Origin: Liolophura sinensis
Lineage: Eukaryota; Mollusca; Polyplacophora; Chitonida; Chitonidae
Length of the DNA: 64,000 bases
Assembly (NCBI RefSeq): GCF_032854445.1
Contig: NC_088301.1
Coordinates: 40,969,187 to 41,033,186, forward strand
Reading direction: 5' to 3'
This document shows positions 10,401-36,900 of this stretch, in pieces (the stretch's first letter is position 1; every line of letters begins with the position of its first letter). The notes beneath the pieces are model-generated. The model was not told where the DNA came from. It was given only the letters and a program-made list of their open reading frames with translations, and did not search any database. The translations under genes and the position numbers were made by a program.

Positions 10401-13400
10401 ATAAAATAAACAAAAAAACTGCGTTCTCACATCCTAAGTTTAGGGAACTATAATTTGTGTTTCTTCATCTGATGTGCCTGAATAATAAGGCTCAATAATT
10501 AGGCCTGATTAGTTGCTTGTTAATTTTACTATTTATTTTCCATCTATTAGTCCACAGTAAATTGGACATTCTATATTTCATCTTAATCTCATGTTAGGTA
10601 CATGTTAACAAATTGACATTGGTGTTCTTATGGAAGATATCCTTAAGTCTAATATTTTTCTTCAAAATACACTGTATGTGAAGGTGACAAGTCACGACCT
10701 ATTTACATATGTGCATAATGTACTGAACTAGAACAAAATTATACCAGGAAAGTGAAATACTCAATTATTTATGGCAAATTTTTGGAAAATACAGTGACAA
10801 ATGCAGTTGCCAAACTGTTGTTCCAGGCGGTATATACCACAATGCATTTCACCAGAACATGCTTGCAGTAACTGGGCCAGTACTGGCCTGATACTCACCC
10901 TAAAGCCATCTTTGCTGGATGCGGCCCATAATAGGGCCGATATGTCACTGTATACAATACTGGGAGAGTTACGGCATAATTGTACTGGCCCAGATTGGAT
11001 GTAAGATGGCGTTTTTGTGTCAGACATTCTTCTGTGCTTGCCTTTATAGCCTTTATATGGCCGATAGTGGCCTGTACTGGCCCTGTTAGGTAATTTTTTA
11101 CTGGGTAACCACTGAAGGGCACTATTTTATATATGGCTTTTATACATCCCCCCTTCCCCTTCCACATTGACTGTTCATGAGAAGCATGCTTTTTCTTTTG
11201 AGACTCTCCCTTCATCTAACTTAGTGGTGACTGCAAGTAGCCGGATTGGGTTTTGACATCATGCAATTGTAACAACAGGAATTTTGTTATTACAAAATTA
11301 TTTATTTACACCATGAAGTGGACAAGTTATGAACAAAGTTTTGTGTATGCCACTCCTGAAACTTCTGTAAGTCTTATGGTAAAGGCAAGCAGGTTGAAAC
11401 ATGCAAGTATTATAGCTCTATGTGGCCTAATGCATGTTTGCACGTACTTTCAGACGTATCAACCCTTTTGATGAGTCATCAGTGGATGTAATGCATGAGA
11501 CAGCTGGGGAAAATGCAGCATTTTCGCAGCCATTTACTGTTCGATTCTGTGGGTCAATGGAGGTAAACTCAGATCGAGGTAAGCACAACATTTACATGTG
11601 GTGTTTATTATTGTGAATTGTCAGATAGAAAAACGATAGTAAAACTTTTTGTTTTCTCGTTTATTTATTTTTTTTTTTATTTTTTTTTTTTTAGTGTATT
11701 CCCAAAAGGAAATGTTTATTAACGCATGTACGTCAATGATTGTGATAGACAAGTTAAAGCTGTATTATTTTGTTTGAAAACCTGAGGTATGAACAGTACT
11801 GTGCTTCTCATTACTGTGCCAGTAGTCTTCTTCTAGCTAGTCCCAACTAGCTGGATTGTAACATGCCTGTATTGGACAGAACTTCCTCACTCTGCAGTCA
11901 GAAAGCAAATATTCCATTCCCGTGTTTCAGGCGAGGGCCTTGTTTTAGCCACTATAAGACAAATCATGGCTGCTCGAGCAATCCACAATGTCTTCAAAAT
12001 GACGGAGTCTGTCTTGTTGGTGACAAACGAGTGTCTAAGGTTTGTTCTTCATACTCCATACATCTTTATTGATGCCTTTCACAAACAAGTAAACACCAGA
12101 TGTATGTAGTATTTACATGAAAACTTTGAAATACAACAATTGGATTACCTTATTTCTTCAACCTTTCAACCACATATGCAGCCAATATTTTGAAATAATC
12201 TTCGGTAACTATGGAGTGTAGAGAAATAATTTGCACATTATTTGTGAAACTTGTATCTTTAATGACACAAATAAATCATTTTTAACATGATATTCTTAAT
12301 AATTGTATGCATGAATTTCACTGAAAAAAGTGCTTAGTGGTTGAAAAGGTTGAAGATTTACAGTCGAAGTACTTGTAAAATGACACTTACCAGTGTATTA
12401 CACAACAAATGTGTGGTGTGCAAAGCTGGGCAATGTTGTAAAACTGCATATGTTTAAATAAATTGTTCAGTGTTGTGGCTCATTTATACTGGGTCAAATG
12501 GTAGGCCTATATTCACATTGAGTCTTTTTTGTTCCACCTGTTCTGCAGGTTGTTAGAGCCATCGACCCATAACATCCGGATAGAGTTTGCGCTTCAAGAC
12601 ATTGCTTTCTGGTCACCTCATAAAGACAACAAAAGGTAAGTGATTTCTGGTCACCTCATAAAGGCAACAAAAAGGTAAATCATTTCTGGTCACCTCATAA
12701 AGGCAACACAAAGTAAGTCATTTATGGTCACCTCATAAAGACAACAAAAGGTAAGTGATTTCTGGTCACCTCATAAAGGCAACAAAAGGTAAGTGATTTC
12801 TGGTCACCTCATAAAGGCAACAAAAAGGTAAATCATTTCTGGTCACCTCATGAAGGCAACACAAAGTAAGTCATTTCTTGTCACCTCATGAAGACAACAA
12901 ATGGTCACCTCACAGATATTACATAAGATGTGTTATTACTATCCACCTCGGAGAGAATTTGCTTTTCAGGACCTTCCTTTCTTTTTTTTTTCCTCACAAA
13001 GACAAAATAAAATAACTGACTTGTTGATTTACACAAGCACCTTGTTTTATATTGCAGGTTGTTTGGGTTCATTACTCGAAGTCGGTCCGATGGACCTGCA
13101 TCCTATGCATGTCACGTGTTTGAATGTGATAAATCTGGTGATGAGGTAAGTTTGACTCAACGTTGTTTTACCTGTGTAAATGTCACAATGTATTGTGACA
13201 TAATGATCAAAAAATAAGACATGAAGATCAAAAATGATTGTCTGGTATGCCACCATATATATTTTTTACATGTTCATATGAAGAATTGTTTTTCTTAACA
13301 TTCCAGAAAATTATATGGTTTGTAGTATATAATATAATACTGATGAGAGCAATAGTTTGAAACTGCAGGTGGGATACCACCGTGTAGAAAATATAGAAAA

Positions 13401-15398
13401 GGCTATTTTGTTCTTTTTCATATGACTACTTTCCGCAATAGAAAATTCTACATTTAATATAATCTATATAATGAAATACATATAGCAAATTTGACAGCAA
13501 GGTTCAAGTCAGTGCAAGGCTTATCTTTTTGATTGAATACCGATAATAATTGTTGAAACATAGGTGTAAATAACTTATACATAATCTACATAATACATAA
13601 ATAATCTTTTGCCAGTTAGTTACATGCGTCTGCAAAAGAAAATCCTGATATTTACAATTTCTTTTTGTCAACAGATTTGCCAAGCTATAAGTACTGCAAC
13701 ACAAATGGCTTATCAAGCATATATGGTAAGAATGCTGTCATTGTAACAGTGTTACCAGTTTATCTGACAGCTTTAGTAAATGATCATTTGTGTGTAAATT
13801 TCTTACATTGTGAGATGGTGTACTTCATTACGTTGCATTTCTTGGAATTCCCGCAAGTCTTCGTAGTTATGTTACTTGTTTGATTTTGATGTTTTTGTCA
13901 TTTCAGGAAAAACGGGCATCCGAAAAGAAGAAGACAAAAGAAAAGGCATAGTATTTACTGTAATTCTTCAACCTTCTCCGCATGCTCATGTTTTGCATGT
14001 TTTCATTCACCAAGTACTTGGAGGCCATTGTAATTCTAAAGGTTGAAGGGTTAAAGGCTATATGTTTTTTTGTGTGTTGTCTACAGATCACACCCCTTTG
14101 TTTTGTGTTGTCTACGGGCCATACCCCTTTGTTTTGTGTGCTGTCTACAGGACATGCCCCTTTGTTTTGTGTGTTGTCTACAGGTCCTACCCCTTTGTTT
14201 TGTGTGTTGTCTACAGGTCCTACCCCTTTTTTGTGTGTGCTGTCTACAGGTCATATGACTTTTTTTGGATGTGTTGTCTACATGTCATACCCCTTTGTTT
14301 TGTGTGTTGTCTACATATCCTACCCCTTTTTTGTGTGTGCTGTCTACAGGTCACACCTCTTTGTTTTGTTTGTTGTTTGTAGGTCACACCCCTCTGTTTT
14401 GTATGTTGTCTACATGTCATACACCTTTGTTTTGTGTGCTGTCTACTGATCACACCCCTTTGTTTTGTGTTGTCTACAGGCCATACCCCTTTGTTTTGTG
14501 TGTCTAAATGCCAAAGCCCTTCACTCGTGCTACATCTGCGCAATGCCAAGTTATCTCAGCACCTTCGGTTAAAACTACACTACTGCTACTGTGCACTGCA
14601 TTGTTGTAATATACATGTACATCGTTATTAATTTAGTTTTTGTTGTAATTAATGCAAACGAAACGTAACAATCTTTAAAGATAAAAACAAATTATGTGGA
14701 TATTGTTACATTGAGTGGTATGTAATTAGAACTGAACTGAGAATTAATTTAGTGAATTAAATAATGTATTTTCTTGACCTTTATACTTCCTCATTCAGGA
14801 CTCTTGCACATTCTTTGAATAGTATTCTGTTCACACAAAAATTGTTCAGATAACTGTACAGTTTAGCATTCTATTCCTAGGGAATGTCAAATTGCACTGA
14901 AAGTTCCTGTGTGTGTATATATTTTAAGGAAATAGAAAGTTTTTATTATTGAAATATGGCTTGACTTTTGAAAATGTATGTTTTTGTTTAAAATTATACA
15001 CTCTTTGCGTAAAGTGACATAAAGTGGCAGTTTGCACGAGTAAAAAGAATGTAAAAATAAGTTAATGGAAATGGTGAATGGATGTGATCTTTTGTCCTTT
15101 ACTTGATAGTCAACCATGTGAGTGGTTAATGTTTCAGAGTTTACTGCTGGCCAACATTGACCAGCTGGAGGATCGGAAAGGTGATCGTGTTAACAGCTTT
15201 TTGGAAGCCGGAGAAGAGGTAGTGCTTGGGGATGATTCAGAGGTGTCTCCTCCACTAAGCCCAGATGGGAAATATGTCCTTCTGGACCAGTCAGATCCTC
15301 ACTTCAAAGCACCAGATGTCAGCAAGCCTCCTTCCAGTGACATAGAAGGGAAGGATGTCAGACAAGTGGAGGGTGCTGAGAGAGAGTCTGAAGCTTAG
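1428..15398 (+). CDS. APPL1: APPL1 (DCC-interacting protein 13-alpha), 3' part of gene, 15 coding exons
   Basis: APPL1 is an endosomal Rab5 effector and adaptor. The BAR and PH domains bind curved, phosphoinositide-bearing membrane, and the PTB domain binds receptor tails and AKT. Exons: 1428-1606, 1873-2037, 2285-2369, 2663-2772, 3308-3350, 3605-3670, 3931-4019, 5084-5224, 11454-11578, 11931-12039, 12549-12635, 13058-13145, 13675-13725, 13907-13945, 15138-15398; all phases agree. Exon 1 gives the end of the BAR domain (ALNSLQYKRK, LLEPIVGYLHA). Exons 2-6 give the PH domain (KSGYLYLR, FFTQGGNLM). Exon 8 has the diagnostic LDTPIQFDMISP. Exons 9-13 are the PTB domain (FCGSMEV, AARAIHNVFKMTES, KRLFGF). 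The protein ends in ERESEA like vertebrate APPL1. Upstream BAR exons lie left of the window. The exon ending at 13945 needs a GC donor. APPL1 and APPL2 split in vertebrates, so this may be the single ancestral APPL. Confidence 0.97.
3180..3297 (+). mobile_element. SINE family I tail fragment
   Basis: Only the 3' half is present: GATGGTTGTGGGTTTCCTCC, GCCCGGTTTCCTCCCACCAT and TTCTTGAGTACGGCG. It ends a few bases before the acceptor of APPL1 exon 3308-3350. Confidence 0.85.
4212..4350 (-). mobile_element. SINE family I tail fragment
   Basis: Minus-strand 3' half with AAAT-type tail (TTTATTTGATTGGTGTTTTA on the plus strand) and CATTATGGTGGGAGGAAACT. It lies in APPL1 intron 4020-5083. Confidence 0.82.
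4641..4850 (+). mobile_element. MITE family B, diverged
   Basis: Left end TACCTTAATTCCTCAATCCC, right end CATTCAAGAAGAATTAG. Shared interior includes GATTGGATTGGCCAATTTCA. It lies in APPL1 intron 4020-5083. Confidence 0.68.
5745..5935 (-). mobile_element. MITE family A, copy 1
   Basis: Inverted ends AAATCTCAACCTTTTCAACC and GGTTGAAAAGATTGAAGAGT. The reverse complement matches 12150-12362 (AAATCATTTTTA, TAATTGTATGCA). It lies in the long APPL1 intron. Confidence 0.75.
8553..8672 (+). mobile_element. SINE family I head fragment
   Basis: It retains GGTTAGCGTGCTAATG, AATGACCCAGGAGCCTCTCA and GTACATGGGAAGG; the 3' body and tail are missing. It lies in the 6.2-kb APPL1 intron. Confidence 0.72.
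10869..11088. mobile_element. MITE family D (220 bp, inverted ends)
   Basis: Ends TAACTGGGCCAGTACTGGCC and GGCCTGTACTGGCCCTGTTA are near-perfect inverted repeats. It lies in the long APPL1 intron. Overlapping short open frames (10801-11004 and minus-strand ones) are chance. Confidence 0.72.
12150..12362 (+). mobile_element. MITE family A, copy 2
   Basis: Ends TTATTTCTTCAACCTTTC and GGTTGAAAAGGTTGAAGATT; the interior matches the reverse complement of 5745-5935. It lies in APPL1 intron 12040-12548. Confidence 0.75.
12606..12901 (+). repeat. 38-39 bp minisatellite built from an exon end plus its 5' splice site
   Basis: About 7.5 tandem units start at 12606, 12644, 12683, 12721, 12759, 12797, 12836 and 12874. 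The first unit is the last 30 coding bases of the APPL1 exon 12549-12635 plus its donor. Each unit reads TTTCTGGTCACCTCATAAAG, then an A-rich stretch, then GTAAGT, GTAAAT or a close variant. Units 1-3 and 5-7 share the same order of variants (38, 39, 38 bp), which suggests a three-unit block duplicated once. Confidence 0.95.
13946..13947 (+). promoter_or_regulatory. Probable non-canonical GC 5' splice site of APPL1
   Basis: The exon 13907-13945 (EKRASEKKKTKEK) matches the end of the APPL1 PTB region and must join SLLLANIDQ at 15138 in phase 0. The junction is AAAAG then GCATAG. No GT donor keeps the frame: the only near one (GTATTT at 13951) would create a TAA across the junction. Without splicing the frame ends at TAG 13949-13951. 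A GC-AG intron is the simplest reading, although GCATAG is a weak match past the first positions. Confidence 0.6.
13956..14053. mobile_element. MITE family B, short internally deleted copy
   Basis: About 98 bases, bounded by TACTGTAATTCTTCAACCTT and AAGGTTGAAGGGTTA. It begins 10 bases after the GC donor of APPL1 and directly precedes the 32-bp array. Confidence 0.55.
14063..14508 (+). repeat. ~32 bp minisatellite with acceptor-like units in an APPL1 intron
   Basis: About 13-14 imperfect copies of a unit like CCCCTTTGTTTTGTGTG followed by TTGTCTACAG and GTCATA. Most copies contain a T/G-rich tract ending in CTACAG, the shape of a 3' splice site. The array lies in the intron between coding exons 13907-13945 and 15138-15398. 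The unit lacks stop codons in several frames, which creates long but meaningless open frames on both strands. Confidence 0.93.
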
Positions 15399-33900: not shown

Positions 33901-36900
33901 TGAAATGGATTTATTACAGGGTTCGTTGCAGTCAACACAAGCTAATTATTAAAGCAACAGGTTAACAATTTATTCTACACCTTACTTCAGTAAATCAACA
34001 TTTATTTAGTACGAATAAGATTTTGACACTTCAAACATAATTCAATCATCCCTAAAAGCAAATGAATATCACAGCCCACAAAATACAGCTCTGACAGCCA
34101 GAAAGGCTTGACTTACACACATTACAATCTTGCATATGTCAGGAGTAACATAGACTTCATGCTGTAGTTGTAGATGGGAAGGTTCCAGATCTGGATTGTC
34201 ACAATTTCTTTTTGACTGCACATGGTCAACAATGATGAGTAGGTGTAATCATGTTGTATCTGGAGAACCTGCAAAGATCGGGAAAAATCGACAATCTTGA
34301 AGTTGTCTTGTTCATCAGCTCTTTGCAATAGAGACCTGTCAAATGCCTGGCAGCAAGCCCTTGACATCATTTTACTGATTGACAGTACGATGTTAAAAAC
34401 AAAAACTGATACAATGTAATGTTGTAGACGTTACCCTACAATCAATTCTTGACATAACAATGACTCAAGATCCTGCTTCACACTATCGCCACCTCACAGT
34501 ATTAAAAAATATATTGCCTTCCCATGACAAAGGGTGCTATCCAATCATGAGCCCATTTTCAAATAAAGCTGATGTCACATTGCAATGAGCACAAGTAGCA
34601 GTGTGAAACAGAATGGGCCACTGGCTACTATAATGTCATTATCAACATCAATTACAAATAGTGGCTTTAACACTCCTTCGGCAGCCACTGAAAACAAAAG
34701 GAATGCACATATAAAATTTACTCCTTTACTAAGATTTCTGAAATCTTTCAGGAGTGAAAGCTAGAAATATTGAATGATTTTCAGCTATTTAGCTTATTAA
34801 GTTAATATTTAGTCTGGTCTTACATATATGCTACTCTCCACAAACCACTTGTAAACTTGCAACATTCAACAATTTGTTGACATATCATACCTTGTCTTTT
34901 GAAACTTTGAACTCCATATGTTTTTAAATTCTTCACAATTGGATCCATGAATAAAATGCGGCCATCCTGCAGAGAGAAGGATCTAATTGGTTAAATCTAT
35001 ATGCCAATGAAAACTTGCTTCCCCAGCAAAACCATTTCCTCATGCCAAATATTTTCGAGTAAAAGAAATGACACATGATCTGTAATACATCAATAACTCT
35101 CGCCATAACCTAAGCCTGTAATTTGGTAGATAATACACATGTAGCAATAATGTGCTCCACATACCATAAGGCTGGTAATATACCAACAAGGCTAATCTCC
35201 ACACGTAGAAAGGGAGGCAATATAGCAAAAAGCTTAATCTCCACACGCAGAAAGGTAGGTAATATAGCAATAGCCTAATCACACTTAGAAAGGTTGGTAA
35301 AATAGTGATAAGGCAAATCTCCACACATAGAAAAAAAGGGACTACAGCAATAAAGCTAACCTCTAAAAGTAATAAGGTAGGTAATATAGCAATAAAGCTA
35401 ATCTCTACAATTAGAAAGGCAGGTAAAATAGCAATAAAGCTATAACCTCTCCAGGTTACAAAAGGCAGGTAATATAGCAATAAGGCTAATCCCCACATGT
35501 AGAAAGGGAGGTAATATATCAATAAGGCTAATCTCCACAAGTAATAAGGTTGGTAATACAGTAATGGCTAACCTCCACATGTAATACGGTAGGTAATATA
35601 GCAATAAAGCTAATCTCCACACATAGAAAAGTAGGTAATACTGCAATAAAGCCAACCTCCAAAAGTCATAAGGTAGGTAATGACAATAAGGCTATTCTCC
35701 ATATGTAATCTAGCAGTAGCCCTAATGTACATGTATAGTTAAGTACCTAATATTGCAGTAATCTCCACCAGACCTGTAGTATGGTAATTATTGTTGCAGA
35801 TATCCTATCTCTGCCTGTTTACACAGTAAAGTAGCTAATGTTGAAATAAACTTAATTTCCAAAAGCAGTAAAGTAGCTATCATTAGTGTCAGGCTAATTC
35901 TGCCAGTCCCGTGGACCATTATAAGCTATATATGGTAATTAGTTACACTAGCTAACTATGCAATAAGCCAACTCTCCACTTGTATGTGTGGTATATGTAG
36001 CTAATATTGCAGTAAAGCCTACTCTCCACCTGCAGTAATATTGCAGTATGTCTAATCTCCAACTATAGTCATGCAGACAATGTTGAAATGCCTTAGTCTT
36101 GTGCCTCACCAGAGTAGTTGTCCCATCCCCGAGCTTACCTCCAGTCCCAAGAGGAGATAACTGTGCTGCAGTGGGCTGCACATGCCCTCTTCTGTCCACA
36201 CCATGGCAGGAGAGACTAGTGTACAAACACACATACAGTCCACCACAGGGTCATTCCCACTCCCACTAATACTGGTCCTATGCACACTTTTACTTCTGTA
36301 GCTCTGGGAAAATGCACTAGGCAAAGAATGAAATGAGGAAAAGGGTTTGTTTCATTGAAAAGCTAAAAAGAAAAAATAAATAAAAAAAGTAATTCAGAAA
36401 CATAATGAATCAATGGGAGAAGTTTTCAATTTGTGTATCATATTGCCACATTATTTATTGGGCATAGAGAAAGCCAATGACCTTCTCCAGGTATCTCACA
36501 AGCCTCCTGATCTAAAGTTGCCAGCTGAACCTGCAAAACCTGGATTTATACATACATTCTTCATCTAGCAAGATCACTAGCGTACTAGGTAATGTTATTT
36601 TATGCTCAATTCCAGCTCGAGATGAAGACTGAAATTGAAAAAATTTGCTCCTCTCTCTTAGCTCACCTTCCTTCTTGATTAAAGCCCTGGCCATCAGAAT
36701 GTGATTTGCAGTAATTCTGGATCTCATTAACATACCAAATGGTAACCCGACAGGCAGGGTCAGTCCTGTAAGACAAGGTACAGCACAGCTTTAAGCATAT
36801 TTCAAATCACGGGAAACTCTTCACATTTCAGGCTTGTTTGCTAGTATACTAATTATGTGTTTGTATTTTTACAGTATGGCAGATGGAAATACATCCAGAT

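What the first reader, a model, noticed from the sequence alone, without database searches (positions are those of the whole stretch)
12606..12901. Minisatellite of exon end plus 5' splice site creates an array of decoy donors in APPL1
The last 30 coding bases of the PTB-domain exon and its donor are amplified in tandem about 7 times. Most units keep AG then GTAAGT or GTAAAT. The real donor (12636) is read as AGG TAA if not used, so any transcript using a later donor of the array gains a stop at 12637-12639 within the PTB domain. The array could act as a splice-fidelity risk or an NMD switch. The shared variant order of units 1-3 and 5-7 shows recent block expansion.
Basis: partly seen in the sequence, partly recalled or inferred. 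Interest (0 to 1): 0.72.

Follow-up and report, generated by a model that had tools for sequence, protein, structure and literature searches.

The report
Splice-donor minisatellite in chiton APPL
In a chiton's APPL gene, the end of one exon together with its splice signal has been copied eight times in a row into the next intron; such repeats ("mirages") were known from amphioxus, recur here in several other chiton genes, and look like neutral debris that splicing tolerates rather than a built-in switch.

Summary
A 38-39 bp unit (last 30 coding bases of a PTB-domain exon plus GTAAGTGA) is repeated about 8 times (12606-12911). Seven units carry a donor: the real one at 12636 and six more at 12675, 12713, 12751, 12789, 12828 and 12866. 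Unit 8 has lost its donor. Any later donor would keep the in-frame TAA at 12637-12639. The genome is that of the chiton Liolophura japonica.

[quoted passage not shown] Human IFI6 has a minisatellite whose downstream units do serve as donors. This is a new member of a known kind, in a mollusc. It is not unique: of about 30 donor-word arrays examined, 5 others begin at exon ends supported by homology (POLR3A, GH31 glucosidase, core-2/I-branching enzyme, EGF domain, ankyrin repeat), and up to 7 more look alike by reading frame.

Donor bases in these arrays are neither better nor worse conserved than the rest of the unit, and donor words are not enriched among arrays over a control word. That fits neutral minisatellite turnover. 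The NMD-switch idea has no positive evidence; RNA was not available.

The parts
12549..12635 (+). Coding exon of APPL PTB domain (87 nt, ends in phase 2); its last 30 nt (12606-12635) are part of unit 1 of the array
   Evidence: joins in frame to the 11931-12039 and 13058-13145 exons; protein aligns to human APPL1 2ej8/2ela across both junctions
12606..12643 (+). Unit 1 (exonic founder unit plus real donor, GT at 12636)
12644..12873 (+). Units 2-7, intronic copies with donors at 12675 (GTAAAT), 12713 (AAAGTAAGT), 12751, 12789 (full AAGGTAAGT), 12828 (GTAAAT), 12866 (AAAGTAAGT)
   Evidence: strengths
12874..12911 (+). Unit 8, degenerate last unit, donor lost (ATG|GTCACC), apparently by fusion to a partial ninth unit
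   Evidence: TRF ends the array at 12905
12637..12639 (+). In-frame TAA read if donor 12636 is not used
   Evidence: translation
13058..13145 (+). Next coding exon (LFGFITRSRSDG...), acceptor TTGCAG

Best explanation
A neutral 'mirage': a minisatellite seeded by tandem duplication of the exon's 3' end plus its donor, then expanded into the intron by slippage or unequal exchange, with a late duplication of a four-unit block. The exon copy stays intact because it is coding; the extra copies are tolerated because splicing mainly uses the first donor (12636), which removes the rest of the array with the intron. Any use of a later donor yields the same stop at 12637-12639 and probably an NMD target, a minor loss. 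Shown: anatomy, founder unit, stop, recency of the block, recurrence in other genes, absence of a conservation signature on the donors. Inferred: which donor is used, NMD, and neutrality of the cost.
For: Array anatomy; conserved PTB residues across the junction identify unit 1 as the founder. Blocks 1-3 and 5-7 differ by 2/117, close to the 1.24% heterozygosity of the species, so the block is young. The same architecture begins at coding exon ends in POLR3A (E 2e-8, match ends at the last exon residue), a GH31 glucosidase, a core-2/I-branching enzyme, an EGF-like exon and an ankyrin exon, with arrays seen. Donor octamer versus rest of unit: mean identity difference +0.008 in 12 exon-end arrays (Wilcoxon p=0.62), no difference from 11 non-exonic arrays (p=0.78). 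Donor word AGGTAAGT 26,660 versus reversed word 29,208 occurrences, and about 15 versus 14 array clusters on contig C1 (counted by hand): donors are not over-represented as seeds. Amphioxus mirages were reported not to interfere with regular splicing.
Against: No RNA was available, so predominant use of 12636 is assumed. Two intronic donors (12751, 12789) are as strong as the real one, and SRSF1 is reported to favour intron-proximal donors, so some decoy use is likely. In IFI6, downstream units of such a minisatellite are used. The conservation test used arrays found by their donor word, which biases towards intact donors, although the non-exonic arrays share that bias.
Confidence: 0.78

Rival explanations
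1. Poison-donor switch: the competing donors, identical in local context to the real one, divert a regulated share of APPL pre-mRNA to the stop at 12637-12639 and so to NMD, with the share set by SRSF1/hnRNP A1 balance and by copy number.
For: Every later donor carries the same stop; donors at 12751 and 12789 equal the real one in sequence score and U1 duplex energy; SRSF1 favours intron-proximal sites; IFI6 is a precedent for use of repeat donors.
Against: Donor bases are not preferentially kept; the same kind of array occurs in unrelated genes; four of the six extra donors are weaker than the real one; no RNA structure that would gate the sites (z 0.20).
Confidence: 0.1
2. Real splicing hazard under weak negative selection: decoys cost some mRNA, and the array persists only because it is young.
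For: Young block; strong decoys; unit 8 has lost its donor.
Against: Large arrays (about 40 copies in POLR3A and the branching enzyme) keep most GT dinucleotides, which constant negative selection should erode.
Confidence: 0.1
3. Assembly artefact: copies collapsed or expanded in assembly, so the true array differs or is absent.
For: Tandem arrays are error-prone; haplotypic duplications were purged from this assembly.
Against: HiFi reads averaging about 8 kb span a 300-bp array; units differ by ordered variants; single locus in the assembly.
Confidence: 0.02

Closest known systems
Amphioxus 'mirages' (Adh3, globins BflGb6/BflGb9, troponin C, PGBD5; PMC3087553, PMC3902484; original Canestro et al. 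2002 not held, known by citation)
   Same: Minisatellite-like tandem duplication spanning an exon-intron boundary; many units keep splice signals; several genes in one genome
   Different: Mollusc, not cephalochordate; here a 38-bp unit at a 5' splice site; haplotype variation and RT-PCR not checked here
Human IFI6 (6-16, G1P3) minisatellite providing multiple splice donors (Turri et al. 1995, as cited in PMC4526556)
   Same: Minisatellite at an exon end supplying several donors in tandem
   Different: In IFI6 downstream units are used and give different isoforms; in APPL any downstream donor keeps a stop codon
Intron gain by tandem duplication of AGGT-containing exon sequence (e.g. potato RdRp, PMC4974935, found; paper not read beyond its abstract)
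   Same: Tandem duplication around a proto-splice site multiplies splice signals
   Different: No new intron here; the copies lie in a pre-existing intron

Membership tests
Mirage (exon-intron boundary minisatellite) | Tandem repeat whose unit spans an exon-intron boundary | tested here: met
   unit 1 is 30 coding nt plus the donor
Mirage (exon-intron boundary minisatellite) | Many but not all units keep splice signals | tested here: met
   7 of 8 units; strengths
Mirage (exon-intron boundary minisatellite) | Recurs in several genes of the genome | tested here: met
   five further genes with homology support
Mirage (exon-intron boundary minisatellite) | Length instability between haplotypes or in somatic cells | not testable with these tools
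   one haplotype in the assembly; only indirect sign is the young block
Mirage (exon-intron boundary minisatellite) | Regular splicing undisturbed | not testable with these tools
   no RNA data held
Mirage (exon-intron boundary minisatellite) | Occurs in cephalochordates (the only lineage reported in the papers found) | tested here: not met
   chiton; this concerns the known range, not the structure that defines a mirage
IFI6-type minisatellite with used downstream donors | Downstream units extend the reading frame into isoforms | tested here: not met
   stop directly after the first donor
NMD (poison) splice switch | Alternative site introduces a stop upstream of later exon junctions | tested here: met
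   stop at 12637-12639, further exons downstream
NMD (poison) splice switch | Alternative site is used and regulated | not testable with these tools
   no RNA data
NMD (poison) splice switch | Alternative sites preferentially conserved | tested here: not met
   no difference from rest of unit, within one species only; no second species available

The most novel reading that the evidence does not exclude
A copy-number-tunable poison-donor array: the number of strong downstream donors sets how much APPL mRNA is lost to NMD, and the same principle acts in a set of chiton genes carrying exon-end arrays.
Probability: 0.05. Interest if true: 0.8.

Novelty: new member of a known kind. Interest (0 to 1): 0.42.

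Why it matters
It extends the mirage phenomenon from cephalochordates to a mollusc and shows it in several conserved genes of one genome, with on the order of a hundred donors in tandem in one case. Such loci are natural experiments on how the spliceosome picks one of many near-identical donors, with exon context copied along, and they are plausible raw material for new introns. The absence of any conservation bias on the donor bases suggests that splicing tolerates such arrays well.

Tried and rejected
RNA structure hiding the decoys: the fold of 12600-12912 is ordinary (z 0.20) and donor accessibility does not single out 12636. Paralogue or second allele: only one locus. The GFP family search was uninformative because the control rang nowhere. 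Array as in-frame coding repeat: rejected for APPL (stop in the units) and for the whole GH31 array (stops in several 39-bp units). The papers by Turri 1995 and Canestro 2002 are not held. One literature query was malformed and not run; a search for APPL splicing and NMD found nothing relevant.

Full report
What is there. Tandem Repeats Finder reports 12606-12905 with period 38 and 7.8 copies, and a better-scoring 153-bp period. Reading the units one by one gives eight: unit 1 lies at the end of exon 12549-12635 and the rest in the intron. Donor dinucleotides begin at 12636, 12675, 12713, 12751, 12789, 12828 and 12866; unit 8 ends in ATG|GTCACC.

Gene. Joining the exons 11931-12039, 12549-12635, 13058-13145, 13675-13725 and 13907 onward gives one open frame with a PTB domain (Pfam PID, 5e-19) whose best solved relatives are human APPL1 PTB structures (8e-41). 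The alignment runs through the junction (HKDNKR|LFGF against HQENKRLFGF), so the exon copy is the functional and founding unit. Reading past 12635 gives AAA AGG TAA; every later donor, and intron retention, therefore gives the same truncated product.

Organism. Eight molluscan hemocyanin units lie in tandem in the genome. The assembly has 632 contigs, with contig lengths 96,433,062 (C1) and 60,359,117 (C7, holding the window); these are the lengths of scaffold_1 and scaffold_3 of the chiton Liolophura japonica (PMC11068029).

Strength and structure of the donors. By a donor weight table (written from general knowledge) and U1 duplex energy, 12636, 12751 and 12789 are identical (12.45; -10.1 kcal/mol); 12675 and 12828 (GTAAAT) and 12713 and 12866 (A at -1) are weaker (8.9-9.1; -6.8 and -5.1), yet score above the real donor of the preceding exon at 12040 (5.4). 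RNA folding offers no gate.

Dynamics. Units 2 and 6 are identical, 3 and 7 differ once, 1 and 5 once; blocks 1-3 and 5-7 differ at 2 of 117 columns, about 1.7%, against 1.24% heterozygosity in the species. If conversion has not reset the clock, the block duplication is about as old as segregating variation, so copy-number polymorphism is expected (inference).

Is it unique? Searching the genome for three AGGTAAGT words 22-45 bp apart gave 511 hits, against 346 for the word read backwards; single-word totals are 26,660 and 29,208, and array clusters on contig C1 number about 15 and 14 (counted by hand from listed places). Donor words are therefore not special seeds. Yet many of these arrays start at coding exon ends. 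Homology support: core-2/I-branching enzyme (Pfam Branch 1.6e-6), GH31 glucosidase (7e-13; maltase-glucoamylase matches run to the last exon residue), EGF_CA exon (1.3e-8), RNA polymerase III subunit RPC1 (2.2e-8, ending at the last exon residue) and an ankyrin repeat (1.7e-4). Reading-frame support only: a deoxyribose-phosphate aldolase-like exon (recalled resemblance; a weak DeoC match lies downstream on the same strand), an ARFGEF3-like exon (recalled), and loci L038, L039, L090 and L080; L088 is doubtful. In all, 5 firm and up to 12 of about 30 arrays. In the window itself, at least 2 of the 6 AGGTAAGT words that are not extra array copies are real APPL donors, so a proportion of this order is what random minisatellite birth would give; no special mechanism is needed.

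Selection on the decoys. Aligning units to each array's consensus, the donor octamer is 0.008 more conserved than the rest in 12 exon-end arrays (p=0.62) and not different from 11 non-exonic arrays (p=0.78). Neither retention nor purging of donors is detectable. Caveats: arrays other than APPL were found by their donor word, units within an array are not independent, and half of the 12 are labelled exon-end on reading-frame evidence alone.

What is known. Tandem repeats spanning exon-intron boundaries were described in amphioxus Adh3 and globin genes as 'mirages'; units vary in length, many keep AG/GT signals, haplotypes differ in copy number, and RT-PCR suggested no interference with regular splicing (PMC3087553). 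PGBD5 and troponin C cases are noted in PMC3902484. The human IFI6 minisatellite provides several donors that are used (PMC4526556). No paper in the held library combined these terms with molluscs, which is weak evidence of novelty for the phylum.

Verdict. The switch hypothesis remains testable with existing RNA-seq but has no positive evidence.

Noticed in passing
L041 (C1:31593500-31598400) with L032, L034: An EGF-like exon end plus donor is repeated at 32 bp over at least 4 kb, of the order of 130 units, the largest exon-end array seen.
   Followed up: partly
L027 (C1:14887958-14891053): An RNA polymerase III RPC1 exon end and donor repeated about 38 times at 44 bp in an essential gene.
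   Followed up: partly
L028 (C1:26351974-26355059): A GH31 glucosidase exon end repeated 19 times with a 39-bp (frame-preserving) unit; early units are open in frame, later ones contain stops, so in-frame isoforms from the first few donors are possible.
   Followed up: partly
13907-15397: APPL exon from 13907 reads ...EKKKTKEKA then TAG, but an exon at about 15138-15397 encodes a C-terminus ending RESEA like human APPL1 (recalled); they join in phase only through a GC donor (AAAAG|GCATAG), suggesting a GC-AG intron or an alternative end.
   Followed up: partly
14068-14503: 33-bp array, 13 copies, in the last APPL intron or 3' region; each unit holds an acceptor-like TTGTCTACAG, but no exon start was seen beside it.
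   Followed up: no
12150-12365: Inverted repeat TTCTTCAACCTTTCAACCAC / GTGGTTGAAAAGGTTGAAGA in the intron before the array, MITE-like; a similar TTCTTCAACCTT occurs near 13966.
   Followed up: no
35155-35708: 42-bp array, 13 diverged copies, with GGTAGGTAAT in many units; host context not studied.
   Followed up: no
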